Below are positions 8,303-19,789 of a stretch of 64,000 nt of DNA, piece after piece (within the stretch, counting starts at the first letter, position 1; each line of letters opens with the position of its first letter). Made by a program: the position numbers and the translations under genes. The notes beneath the pieces were generated by a model, which worked only from the letters and a program-made list of their open reading frames with translations, had not been told where the DNA came from and searched no databases. Source of the stretch: Prosopocoilus inquinatus (Eukaryota; Arthropoda; Insecta; Coleoptera; Lucanidae); contig CM069877.1 in the NCBI GenBank assembly GCA_036172665.1, forward strand, positions 15,024,501 through 15,088,500. The letters run 5' to 3'.

Positions 8303-8683
8303 TGTCACGCTCGCTCCGGGGTAGCGGCGATGCTATCAGAAAAATGAGGGGGTAGCTCAGTGGTAAAGGAACCGTTTTGCCGTTTAAAAATTGGATCGAC
8401 TTACCGGCCTTCTTGGGGTCGCCTGAAGCTGGTATGAGGGTAAAGGGGTCCAGGAAAAGCCCACTCACTGAGTATCACGTTTATTTGGCACAACCAACCA
8501 AATCTCCGGAAGACCCACGTTTCTGAGTCGCCCTTGCCCAGCGAATAGTCCCCCGCTCCGATCGAAGACACGATCGAGCGCTCATTCCGATATTGGCGAC
8601 TCAGCAAAGTGTGCCCCACCGTACCGCAATATTTAACATGTATATACAGAGTGTTTAAATTAACAAAAGCACCCTTCGTGACA
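8303..8683 (-). repeat. 3' LTR of G2
   Basis: Identical to 19409-19789 except one base (A against C near 8501/19607). It is next to the polypurine tract at 8684-8693 and bordered outside by ATAT. Confidence 0.95.
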
Positions 8684-8693
8684 TTTCCCCCCC
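8684..8693 (-). other. Polypurine tract of G2
   Basis: GGGGGGGAAA on the minus strand directly abuts the 3' LTR. This is the expected primer for plus-strand DNA synthesis. Confidence 0.75.
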
Positions 8694-9550
8694 GCCGGAG
8701 AATATGCTTCCATGCATATTTATATTACCAATAGCCGTCACGAAGATATTACTTTTCCTAATAGCTAATTGAATTATAATTTAAATATGTTAACAAAGCT
8801 ACACATTATTCTTAATGGATCAACTGCTGATTTTCTATTTATTCCATGGTCCGAATGATGTTCAAATTCAAGATGTTGGAGGGACTCCTCGTTTGCTTAT
8901 AGGTCGAAGTGATTTAAGGTGGTAAACTCGGTCTTGAATTCGTAGTATATGTACTTGTGTGATGCCCTACTTAATTCAGGCATCATCTTCATTTTGCTCT
9001 GGTGTTGACCTTCGGTTTATCGTTTAGGAGCCTCAACTACTTTTCCCTCCACTAGGATTTTTTGGTTCCATATTTTCTTTCCTTTGTCCGTTGATTAACT
9101 TGATAATATCCTTGGTTCTTCGGCAGCGTCCATAAAAGAAAAGGCAGCATCAGAATTTTACATTTACAATATACGTTAGGTTTGTAGGTTGTGCCCCATG
9201 AATTACAATATTTGACTAATCTCTAATTCAATATAAAGTTATAAAAATATTTTCTGTTAAATTTGGTATTATGCTTGAATGACATACATGTATTACAATC
9301 GTAGAATTAACAAGAACTTTAATATAATAATTATAATGGTAATAACAAAAATATCTAGTACCGACGCAACGATTGGCCATTTCCTTGCGTAGGTCAAGGA
9401 AAAAAAATGAGTAATACATATATAGTACATGTTTACTACTAAGTGCTAAAATTTTCTTAAGCTAACGGAAAATGTAATTAGAAATTGTAATTTTCTTATT
9501 AGTAGTTAACCTCGGGACACTACTTCCGTCGAGGGTTGGATGTCTGCTGA
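8694..9550 (-). other. G2 non-coding region between env and the polypurine tract
   Basis: About 860 bases without a convincing coding frame. It would form the 3' untranslated part of the genomic and env RNAs. Confidence 0.6.
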
Positions 9551-16976: not shown

Positions 16977-18724
16977 TTATTATTCATCTTTCTGCCATAA
17001 TCGTATCCTTTCTTAATTACACATTGCCCCTCTCTGTTCAGTGGATTATTGGGAATTTGCCTTCCTGCTATTAATTTTCTACATGTTGACGCTGTGTGTC
17101 CTCTTGTATTACACCATTGACATGTCGGGACGTTCACTGATCTCGCTTCTTTATTGTCGTCATTGTTATACCCTCTTCTTGGAGTCAATTTTCTACAATT
17201 TCTGGCCATATGACCAGCGTAACCACAAATTTGGCAATTAAAGATGTTTGAAGTTCGTTGATAATGCTTTTGGTTTTTGATTCCTGTCAAATGAAAATTA
17301 TTCCTTTTGTCATCCTCTCCAAATTTTTTATGCTCGAGTTTTCTTCTGGCATTGTAGTAAACAGAATCCCCCTTTCGATCTCTAAAGGCGTCTTCTTTTC
17401 GGTCAACAGTCAATTTGTCGATTAATTTATTTATTATGCCCATTGTTTCCGACTGATCTTGTCTTATGTCCGATCTTCGTAGGTCATAGCCGTGATTCTC
17501 TTCTTCGGGATTTTTCCCCACGTCCTTATGCAGAATTGTCTTCCCTTCCTTTTCTGTCTCTTCTATGGTGTCCATAAAATGTTCTAAATCTTTTAAACTT
17601 GTTGGACACTTTATGCATACCATATGTCTATAGTAGGGTAATAATCCCGCCATCAAGCGTTGTAGAATTTCTCTTTCGGGCATTTTCGGATTATAATCGT
17701 TACAGATTTCTATAAATGAATAAAAAAAGTCCGTTAAGCTTTCGTTTGTTCGTTGTTTCCGAATAATTAATTTTTCTTGCAATTTAAATTCGAAATTGGG
17801 ACCTAAAAATTTATCTTTGAACTTTTTTATTGTCCAATCCCAATCGGCCTCTGGATTATTTCTTATCAAATTTTCAAACCAGGCAAGTGCACTACCTTCC
17901 AAAGAATTTTCCAAATATCCTAGCTGTTCCAATTCGTCCCAACCGTTCATTTTGGCTACAACTTTATATTTTTTCAAGAAAGTCATAGGATCATCTTCCT
18001 GCGGATTAAAAGCTGGTGGTTTCGAAAATTTTGGCGCCACTGATTTACGTGTGTTATAAAACATACTAATTGATTTATTTCTACTCGTCCAATTAGGTTC
18101 CTTCGAATTAAATTCGTGGATTTCCGGGTTTTGCTTCAATTTTCCGTTATTAGGTTCCAATTGTTTCCTCTGTACGATATTATTTTGTTTCGGAATTGCT
18201 CCTTTTCGTAAGAACGTATCATCTGCTGATGGCGCAACGCGCGTTTCCAGTATTTTTTCTCTTTGTTCCATTATCGATTCCGCTAAGGATTTCGGTTTAA
18301 TTGTTGTCTCTGTGCTCAGTCGTTCTGGCCAAGTGGGGGGATCGGGTATTGGACTGGGATTTAGAATTTGCCGCTGGTTTTCTTGATGTAAGACTTGTTT
18401 CAATGTCCGAAATTGGTGTGGGTTCGGACTGACTTGAGTCTGCTGACATCTGTTAGGCGTGGTAATCGCGGGTGTTTGTTCTAGTGTCTCTGTTTTGTCA
18501 TTTTTATCTTCCAAAATTGTTAAGTCTTCTTCGCTGCCTAATGTTATTTGTAAATTTTTTCGACCTGCTGGCGGCGATCGTGGTGTCAATGTGCTCCTCG
18601 CTAGCGGGAAAAAAGCGTGTTTATCTAATGTTACGTGAATTTCTGGCTTCTTTTTTTCCTTTATTAAATTCTCGACTTTTTCGTCATCTTTGCTCCTTAG
18701 CCTTGTTCTGGGTCCTTCAGCCAT
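16940..18724 (-). CDS. gag: Gag polyprotein of G2 (594 aa)
   Basis: Forms the particle and binds genomic RNA. Residues 1-235 are a long, polar, probably disordered region (basic start MAEGPRTRLRSK). The Ty3-type Gag core is at about 237-390, with AFNPQEDDPMTFLKKYKVVA, AWFENLIRNN and TDFFYSFIEICNDYNP. Two CCHC zinc knuckles follow: CQICGYAGHMARNC at about 497-510 and CQWCNTRGHTASTC at about 535-548. The start is the ATG at 18724, about 685 bases from the LTR. The last 12 codons overlap pol in the -1 register. The frame is intact. Confidence 0.93.
   Translation of the reverse strand: MAEGPRTRLRSKDDEKVENLIKEKKKPEIHVTLDKHAFFPLARSTLTPRSPPAGRKNLQITLGSEEDLTILEDKNDKTETLEQTPAITTPNRCQQTQVSPNPHQFRTLKQVLHQENQRQILNPSPIPDPPTWPERLSTETTIKPKSLAESIMEQREKILETRVAPSADDTFLRKGAIPKQNNIVQRKQLEPNNGKLKQNPEIHEFNSKEPNWTSRNKSISMFYNTRKSVAPKFSKPPAFNPQEDDPMTFLKKYKVVAKMNGWDELEQLGYLENSLEGSALAWFENLIRNNPEADWDWTIKKFKDKFLGPNFEFKLQEKLIIRKQRTNESLTDFFYSFIEICNDYNPKMPEREILQRLMAGLLPYYRHMVCIKCPTSLKDLEHFMDTIEETEKEGKTILHKDVGKNPEEENHGYDLRRSDIRQDQSETMGIINKLIDKLTVDRKEDAFRDRKGDSVYYNARRKLEHKKFGEDDKRNNFHLTGIKNQKHYQRTSNIFNCQICGYAGHMARNCRKLTPRRGYNNDDNKEARSVNVPTCQWCNTRGHTASTCRKLIAGRQIPNNPLNREGQCVIKKGYDYGRKMNNNLNGTGQSTKRP
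16970..16976 (-). promoter_or_regulatory. -1 frameshift heptamer T TTA AAT between gag and pol of G2
   Basis: In the gag frame codons TTA AAT are preceded by T, giving the X XXY YYZ heptamer UUUAAAU. The pol frame is blocked by TAA at 16977-16979, immediately upstream. It becomes open at exactly this point, which strongly marks the slip position. Confidence 0.75.
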
Positions 18725-19408
18725 TTATGTATCAAACGTTATTAAATTTACCCGAGATTATTCCGTCCGCCTTAATTAATGTTCCGATAATTAAATATTA
18801 TGTTTATTAGAAGCATATTTGTGTACGCTAATATTTATTTTGTCTCTTTGGGCCCTTTTTATTATTAGGCTTTTTATAGACCGCAATAAGCACCTTACTA
18901 TAGTGCCTTACATTTGCACATTTTTATCGTATACGATTTTAATTGTTACCTATTTAAAATCGTCTGACACAGCAACGTGTCACAATACACCTGTTCAGTG
19001 AACTTCCGCGGTACGTGCAATTAAATAATTACCGCACACGTATTCCTTTTTATTTAATAATTTTTGTTAATATTGGCCACCGTATTTATTTAAAAATTAA
19101 TATTTGGTTATCAATTCATACCGTTGCGTTGTTGGTTTGAACGACCTATAGCTCTTATAAATGACAAAGTGGCAGTTTTTTGATCAACGCATTATTTAGA
19201 TAAGAAAAAGGAAAGGTATTTATAATTAGCGGGCTGGATTCTCTAATTGTATTTAAAAAATTATATCATAAACTGTGACCGCTTTTGCCTAAAACACACG
19301 AGGTATTTCAAGTGACCGCACCCTAACGAGTTGACTACGTGTCCCGACCCAATTAATGTTAAACGTTACTTCTACTCAAATTATCGCGCAAAGAGGCGCC
19401 TCCACCAC
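18725..19408 (-). other. G2 5' leader with candidate primer-binding site at 19392-19407
   Basis: About 685 bases between the LTR and the gag ATG with no convincing frame. One base from the LTR end the minus strand reads TGGTGGAGGCGCCTCT, starting with the TGG expected of a PBS. I could not match it to a particular tRNA. Confidence 0.55.
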
Positions 19409-19789
19409 TGTCACGCTCGCTCCGGGGTAGCGGCGATGCTATCAGAAAAATGAGGGGGTAGCTCAGTGGTAAAGGAACCGTTTTGCCGTTTAAAAATTGG
19501 ATCGACTTACCGGCCTTCTTGGGGTCGCCTGAAGCTGGTATGAGGGTAAAGGGGTCCAGGAAAAGCCCACTCACTGAGTATCACGTTTATTTGGCACAAC
19601 CAACCCAATCTCCGGAAGACCCACGTTTCTGAGTCGCCCTTGCCCAGCGAATAGTCCCCCGCTCCGATCGAAGACACGATCGAGCGCTCATTCCGATATT
19701 GGCGACTCAGCAAAGTGTGCCCCACCGTACCGCAATATTTAACATGTATATACAGAGTGTTTAAATTAACAAAAGCACCCTTCGTGACA
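19409..19789 (-). repeat. 5' LTR of G2, with promoter, poly(A) and donor signals
   Basis: On the minus strand it holds TATATA at about 19752-19747, AATAAA at 19591-19586 and a consensus splice donor GTAAGT at 19510-19505. The donor lies about 100 bases before the LTR end. The TATA box near the LTR start is consistent with a short U3. Confidence 0.9.

What the first reader, a model, noticed from the sequence alone, without database searches (positions are those of the whole stretch)
8303..19789. One mobile element combining Env, an ADP-ribosyl hydrolase and a deubiquitinase: a likely counter-defence retroelement
Seen: intact gag, pol and env with two extra enzyme domains that erase two host protein marks. 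Known: coronavirus nsp3 pairs macrodomains with a papain-like deubiquitinase to blunt innate immunity. Inference: G2 has independently assembled the same pair in a reverse-transcribing element, possibly to survive insect antiviral or piRNA-linked defences during spread between cells. The two domains sit at different sites in Pol, so they were probably acquired in separate events.
Basis: inference. Interest (0 to 1): 0.95.

Follow-up and report, generated by a model that had tools for sequence, protein, structure and literature searches.

The report
Retrovirus-like element carrying two mark-erasing enzymes

Summary
Window 8303-19789 (minus strand) is a complete LTR element: 381-bp LTRs with 1 mismatch, 4-bp target duplication, gag, pol reached by a -1 frameshift heptamer, Baculo_F-type env. 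Pol carries a TARG1-class macrodomain between protease and RT (human TARG1, E 7e-38; K84 and D125 equivalents kept) and a USP deubiquitinase after integrase (Pfam UCH 4e-56; catalytic boxes kept). It is no single copy: 17 copies in this 650-Mb genome have the 1764-aa Pol frame; of 16 others checked, 12 have identical LTR pairs with 4-bp duplications. Three diverged families (RT 80-88% identical where uninterrupted) keep both domains at the same sites under purifying selection, though faster-evolving than RT. The domains have separate histories: of 150 macrodomain rows 33 have a USP nearby, sampled Ty3/Gypsy families carry the macrodomain at three Pol sites, and unnamed relatives have it without USP. 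Counter-defence is the likeliest purpose but untested; the host is unidentified; no descent from coronavirus nsp3 is shown. Macro-domain ORFs in fish endogenous retroviruses were already reported (PMC4977317, passage); for a USP, or the pair, I found no report in the searches made.

The parts
8303..8683 (-). 3' LTR (381 bp, TGTCAC...GTGACA)
   Evidence: 1 mismatch to the 5' LTR
19409..19789 (-). 5' LTR (381 bp)
8299..8302 (.). target-site duplication ATAT, left copy
19790..19793 (.). target-site duplication ATAT, right copy
19390..19407 (-). candidate primer-binding site, begins TGG one base after the 5' LTR; tRNA not identified
   Evidence: sequence read; assignment inferred
8684..8696 (-). 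candidate polypurine tract directly before the 3' LTR
   Evidence: sequence read; assignment inferred
16940..18724 (-). gag frame, 594 aa: Retrotrans_gag and CCHC knuckles (knuckles below Pfam cut-off, read by eye)
16970..16976 (-). U UUA AAU heptamer in the phase for -1 frameshifting; the pol frame opens exactly here
11682..16976 (-). pol frame, 1764 aa
16551..16808 (-). aspartic protease
   Evidence: PF13975 1.3e-6
15915..16334 (-). TARG1-class macrodomain; Lys (pol residue 288) and Asp (329) equivalent to human K84 and D125
14685..15167 (-). reverse transcriptase, YLDD at pol 713
14103..14420 (-). RNase H
12744..13793 (-). integrase: H2C2 zinc finger, core, p58/SH3 C-terminal domain
   Evidence: core below its curated cut-off
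11700..12602 (-). USP (peptidase C19) domain; Cys 1467, His 1717, Asn-Asp 1737-1738, two CxxC pairs
9551..11521 (-). env frame, 656 aa; Baculo_F over residues 25-602, C-terminal transmembrane stretch; no R-x-K/R-R site found

Best explanation
An env-bearing Ty3/Gypsy retroelement (errantivirus-like provirus), recently mobile in its host, that makes a Gag-Pol precursor by -1 frameshifting. The precursor includes a TARG1-class mono-ADP-ribosyl hydrolase and a USP deubiquitinase. Because both sit in Pol rather than in a separate gene, they should be packaged with RT and integrase and act in the producing and the newly entered cell, erasing ADP-ribose and ubiquitin from element proteins (or host factors and nucleic-acid ends) and so blunting PARP- and ubiquitin-ligase-based restriction. 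Shown: anatomy, intact motifs, recent transposition, conservation of both domains in four families. Inferred: frameshifting itself, expression, packaging, enzyme activity and the defence role.
For: Complete coding element. Catalytic residues in family rows other than the window: macrodomain Lys and Asp in 7 of 7 rows; USP Cys in 15 of 17 (the other two rows lack that part or have it disrupted), His in 17 of 17. 16 of 16 further full-frame copies have an uninterrupted macrodomain; 12 of 16 have no LTR difference plus a 4-bp duplication. Between families pN is well below pS: macrodomain 0.25-0.34 against 0.65-0.83; USP 0.29-0.44 against 0.68-0.83; both change faster than RT (pN 0.05-0.14), about as fast as PR. 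Macrodomains at three Pol positions in sampled families suggest repeated recruitment. Viral macrodomains reverse MARylation and matter for replication (PMC8053099, passages).
Against: No activity, expression or particle data. Fast evolution can be relaxed constraint rather than an arms race; synonymous sites are near saturation, so ratios are rough. Within the young A family the USP differs from the window at 9 nonsynonymous (one a stop) and 1 synonymous codon in 10 copies, unlike the macrodomain (1 N, 4 S in 18 copies) and IN (5 N, 7 S in 10). Family B has Ser where the third USP residue is Asn in the other rows; single rows have lost a zinc cysteine (L013) or the Asp after it (L028). Rows of B and D, fragments and one A copy carry stops. 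Related macrodomains elsewhere have lost the Asp (P0080) or both residues (P0119), so hydrolysis is not always needed.
Confidence: 0.5

Rival explanations
1. The macrodomain works on nucleic acid: it removes ADP-ribose from the ends or bases of element RNA or cDNA, so that reverse transcription and integration can proceed; the USP has a separate role.
For: TARG1 removes ADP-ribose from terminal phosphates of dsDNA and ssRNA, and DNA ADP-ribosyltransferases (pierisins) are described as part of a butterfly defence (PMC8053099, passages). DarG macrodomains, DNA-mark erasers (recalled), come next after TARG1 in the fold search. The 1784-aa family has the domain directly before integrase, by spacing.
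Against: No evidence that element cDNA is marked; human TARG1 also acts on acidic residues of proteins.
Confidence: 0.2
2. Self-maintenance: the USP keeps the element's own Gag, Pol or Env from degradation, or helps process the precursor, without any host defence being targeted.
For: C-terminal fusion in Pol; the USP is conserved in four families.
Against: Does not explain the macrodomain. USPs are not general polyprotein proteases (recalled). I did not search the precursor for cleavage sites or ubiquitin-like parts beyond the Pfam scan.
Confidence: 0.2
3. Passenger domains without function, kept only because the family is young.
For: Young family A; N-rich USP differences; stops in single copies.
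Against: Catalytic motifs kept across families near saturation at synonymous sites, pN far below pS.
Confidence: 0.04
4. Binding rather than erasing: the macrodomain is an ADP-ribose reader that tethers Pol to PARP-marked chromatin or granules and so chooses integration sites or location.
For: Some relatives have lost catalytic residues yet keep a recognisable domain; its position differs between families.
Against: K84 and D125 equivalents kept in all four families here.
Confidence: 0.1

Closest known systems
Env-carrying Ty3/Gypsy elements, errantiviruses (gypsy, ZAM)
   Same: gag-pol-env, Baculo_F-type env, PR-RT-RH-IN order, 4-bp duplication
   Different: two added enzyme domains inside Pol; RT not placed against named errantiviruses
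Fish Epsilon-like endogenous retroviruses with macro-domain or CNPase ORFs (Basta et al. 2009, as cited in PMC4977317)
   Same: macro domain carried by a reverse-transcribing element, reported before
   Different: described as additional open reading frames, in Retroviridae of fish; macro class and any deubiquitinase not stated in the passage (the original was not read)
TARG1/OARD1/C6orf130 macrodomain hydrolases
   Same: fold and catalytic Lys and Asp; 40-44% identity
   Different: fused inside a retroelement Pol
USP (peptidase C19) deubiquitinases, USP2/USP21/USP46
   Same: whole fold, Cys and His boxes, zinc cysteines; 29-32% identity
   Different: C-terminal extension of Pol after integrase
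Coronavirus nsp3
   Same: ADP-ribose eraser and deubiquitinase in one viral polyprotein (recalled; an nsp3 stretch matches the USP model at 3e-5)
   Different: macrodomain of the TARG1 class and USP-type protease; order, genome type and origin differ
Orchid Ty3/Gypsy with AlkB RNA demethylase (PMC9289625)
   Same: captured eraser enzyme proposed to serve against host surveillance
   Different: separate ORF, RNA mark, plant (abstract and introduction read)
Insect LTR elements with viral SF1 helicase (PMC6338049); planarian Burro elements (PMC6431247)
   Same: accessory host-interaction domains in retroelement polyproteins
   Different: other domains: helicase; MATH_TRAF_C, BIR, BCL2-like

Membership tests
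Ty3/Gypsy LTR retroelement | LTRs, target duplication, Pol order PR-RT-RH-IN | tested here: met
Ty3/Gypsy LTR retroelement | RT-IN closest to other Ty3/Gypsy-type Pols | tested here: met
   120 hits listed of 3174, PR-RT-RH-IN-type Pols; best full-coverage identity 56% (P0060). Family name of the hits inferred from domain order
Errantivirus | env gene of the Baculo_F type | tested here: met
   1.2e-31
Errantivirus | RT inside the errantivirus clade | not tested
   no named errantivirus RT was in the set
Errantivirus | infectious particles | not testable with these tools
   none
TARG1-class macrodomain | K84 and D125 in a macrodomain fold closest to TARG1 | tested here: met
   (the macrodomain model itself has pLDDT 64)
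TARG1-class macrodomain | de-MARylation activity | not testable with these tools
   none
USP deubiquitinase | Cys and His boxes, third Asn/Asp, zinc cysteines, USP fold | tested here: met
USP deubiquitinase | cleaves ubiquitin conjugates | not testable with these tools
   none
Coronavirus nsp3-like module | common descent of both domains with nsp3 | tested here: inconclusive
   nearest relatives are TARG1 and USPs; nothing found that shows descent from nsp3

The most novel reading that the evidence does not exclude
ADP-ribosylation is a general anti-retroelement defence in this host lineage: Ty3/Gypsy elements have recruited TARG1-type erasers again and again (three Pol positions in the families sampled, 150 listed loci), and one subgroup then added a deubiquitinase so that it can dismantle mixed ADP-ribose and ubiquitin marks on incoming particles.
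Probability: 0.3. Interest if true: 0.95.

Novelty: new variant of a known kind. Interest (0 to 1): 0.78.

Why it matters
Coronaviruses show that a virus can profit from carrying both erasers. A reverse-transcribing element that put together a comparable pair from different enzyme classes, keeps both under selection and has moved very recently would point to ADP-ribose and ubiquitin as marks that host cells use against retroelements, a question that is hard to approach otherwise. Families with the macrodomain alone and with both domains share one genome and give a natural comparison.

Tried and rejected
Protein database with the macrodomain stretch of Pol: no hit at E 0.001 (404 candidates), although P0078 and P0084 turned up through the RT-IN search; that negative was a limit of the search. 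USP stretch: 6 hits, cellular-type USP proteins by name or Pfam, none with Pol domains. IMG/VR scans: RT piece none, USP piece none, macrodomain one 162-kb contig, L001. Prokaryote genomes: two TARG1-like loci. Tree of macrodomains (12 rows): one origin of all element macrodomains neither shown nor rejected (p-AU 0.151; long branches). RT-IN tree: window plus 29 relatives chosen from 75 that passed length filters (of 120 listed); macrodomain carriers scattered, one origin not shown. My first reading that the target duplication was imperfect was a misread boundary, corrected. One of my notes counts 18 full-frame copies; the tables give 17. Stretches L113 and L114, fetched to see the C-terminal side of two macrodomain loci, held no element domain. 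Host species not determined. A search of the own genome with the RT piece, which would have counted elements with neither domain, did not complete. Papers: searches on these domains (one search was on errantivirus env). On re-checking a listing, PMC4977317 proved to report macro-domain ORFs in fish endogenous retroviruses; I lowered interest from 0.82 to 0.78 for this. Chary and Hayashi 2025 on env-carrying elements is not held and remains unread.
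Full report
What is there. The element runs on the minus strand from 19789 to 8303. The LTRs are 381 bp, begin TGTCAC and end GTGACA, and differ at one base. The flanks give ATAT on both sides. A G-rich tract precedes the 3' LTR and a TGG-initial stretch follows the 5' LTR (roles inferred). Three frames cover the interior: gag 594 aa, pol 1764 aa, env 656 aa. Gag and pol overlap by 37 nt. The heptamer TTTAAAT at 16976 lies in the X XXY YYZ phase of gag, and the pol frame opens exactly there: the arrangement expected for -1 frameshifting.

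Not a single copy. The assembly has 650 Mb in 173 contigs. The UCH family gives 108 matches (all 124 candidates scored), which include stretches that look like host USP exons. 17 copies including the window lie in a 1764-aa frame. I fetched the macrodomain and both LTRs of the other 16: 16 of 16 have an uninterrupted macrodomain with both catalytic residues (15 identical to the window, one at 99.5%). 13 of 16 have no difference between their own LTRs, and 12 of those have a perfect 4-bp duplication; the thirteenth is one of a tandem trio on C5; for three copies (two of that trio and C8:40497526) I did not resolve the boundaries. The family has moved very recently.

Other families. Of 20 stretches fetched around other UCH matches, most fall into three further families with the same plan: B (L010, L011), C (L024-L027, fragments L019, L022) and D (L013-L018); L028 and L029 belong to the window's family. 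Identity to the window, where the domain is uninterrupted: RT 88, 85 and 80-81%; macrodomain 55, 49-53 and 44-46% (broken ones 44-58%); USP 46-49, 41-43 and 31-32.5%. Both domains were seen together in 9 of the 28 loci L002-L029; L002-L009 were too short to reach the macrodomain (seen for seven of these copies, whose frames are 1764 aa; not fetched for L004, whose frame is 1213 aa), seven loci showed a USP without a macrodomain in the stretch fetched, and four (L012, L020, L021, L023) showed a weak USP match only or nothing. Apart from the window, macrodomain Lys and Asp are kept in 7 of 7 rows; the USP Cys in 15 of 17 rows (in L019 and L022 that part is missing or disrupted), the QDA box and the GHY His in 17 of 17, all four zinc cysteines in 16 of 17 (not L013); family B has Ser-Asp in place of Asn-Asp, L028 Asn-Asn. 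Stops occur in some rows: macrodomain L016 (1) and L018 (2); USP L010, L013, L029 (1 each), L019 (3), L022 (5).

Selection. Synonymous sites are close to saturation between families, so ratios are rough, but nonsynonymous differences are far fewer: macrodomain pN 0.25-0.34 with pS 0.65-0.83; USP 0.29-0.44 with 0.68-0.83; PR 0.32-0.38 with 0.63-0.73 (no B row); IN 0.10-0.24 with 0.78-0.86; RT 0.05-0.14 with 0.78-0.94. Both captured domains are constrained, yet their pN is about two to five times that of RT. Pairs within a family are too close to judge (ratios from 0.15 to 2.4). Within the young A family the macrodomain has 4 synonymous and 1 nonsynonymous codon differences in 18 copies, the USP 1 and 9 in 10 copies (one a stop), IN 7 and 5 in 10: too few for a test, and the USP count does not speak for strong constraint at present.

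Separate histories. The macrodomain search counted 151 matches from 150 scored of 1308 first-look candidates, so its counts are lower bounds. Of 150 rows entered in a script, 33 have a listed UCH match within 6 kb downstream on the same strand; of 58 with frames of at least 1350 aa, 21 do. I could sample only five loci outside families A-D. L109 (C9:26079762) has gag, PR, macrodomain and RT in this order, RT 77% identical to the window, and no listed UCH match nearby. The 1916- and 1953-aa families end, after integrase, in a long, largely acidic tail without a Pfam domain. In the 1784-aa family the integrase core begins about 450 bp after the macrodomain, so by spacing the domain sits directly before integrase. 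In the family of C1:46145077 the integrase C-terminal domain lies directly upstream of the macrodomain, and no frame of 90 aa or more lies in the stretch 0.4-1.3 kb downstream. That makes three sites, which argues for several captures or moves. Whether all 150 rows lie in Ty3/Gypsy elements was not checked. Outside this genome, of 120 listed RT-IN relatives two (P0078, P0084) have a clear TARG1-type domain between PR and RT, and four more have diverged or partial matches, one of them after integrase and one weak (P0122); their hosts are unnamed. The nearest relatives by RT-IN (P0060, P0072, P0101, P0104) show none, and none of the 120 matches the USP. The simplest order is macrodomain first, USP later in the ancestor of families A-D; this is inference.

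Mechanism. Pol placement means that both enzymes would be made at the frameshift level and carried with RT and integrase; this is inferred. TARG1 and viral macrodomains remove mono-ADP-ribose from proteins, TARG1 also from nucleic-acid ends, and viral macrodomains are reported to matter for replication and against PARP effects (PMC8053099, passages). I therefore think that protection of element proteins or intermediates from ADP-ribose- and ubiquitin-based restriction is the most likely use, at about one in two; rivals are given.

Novelty. Accessory domains in LTR elements are known (PMC9289625 abstract and introduction; PMC6338049 part 1 of 4; PMC6431247 passages), and macro-domain ORFs were reported in Epsilon-like endogenous retroviruses of ray-finned fish (PMC4977317, passage citing Basta et al. 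2009). In eight paper searches on these domains I saw no report of a USP, of a macrodomain inside Pol, or of the pair in an LTR retroelement; I judged most papers from listings, the library is partial, and the survey of env-carrying elements most likely to mention it is not held. The kind is known; the variant appears new.

Noticed in passing
G000 C5:47383136-47417886 (L053-L055, L069-L071): Three A-family copies in tandem with period 11482; neighbouring LTRs abut with the last bases of one trimmed, like a two-LTR junction.
   Followed up: partly
L116 (C2:10191500-10192300) and macrodomain at C2:10190653-10191066: A family with 1784-aa frames has the TARG1-type domain directly before integrase, by spacing.
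   Followed up: partly
L117, L115 and macrodomain at C1:46145077-46145490: A repeat family has the TARG1-type domain directly after the integrase C-terminal domain.
   Followed up: partly
L110, L111: The 1916- and 1953-aa Pol frames end in long acidic tails after integrase, without a known domain.
   Followed up: partly
P0080, P0119, P0079, P0122: Relatives with diverged or partial macrodomain matches; P0080 lost the catalytic Asp, P0119 both residues; P0079 has it at the C-terminus.
   Followed up: partly
8349-8375: The LTR holds a stretch that resembles a tRNA D-arm / box A (resemblance recalled, not tested).
   Followed up: no
717-2252, minus strand: A 511-aa Gag-like frame with SAP domain and zinc knuckle (PNMA match below cut-off), part of another element near the window's edge.
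   Followed up: no
6788-7780, 23278-24036, 27483-28355: Frames with reverse transcriptase domains of other elements.
   Followed up: no
L001 (6001-6480): TARG1-like macrodomain gene on a 162-kb viral contig.
   Followed up: no
G000 C9:24799539-24803173: Two A-family macrodomain copies on opposite strands about 2.7 kb apart, each with one stop in the stretch.
   Followed up: no
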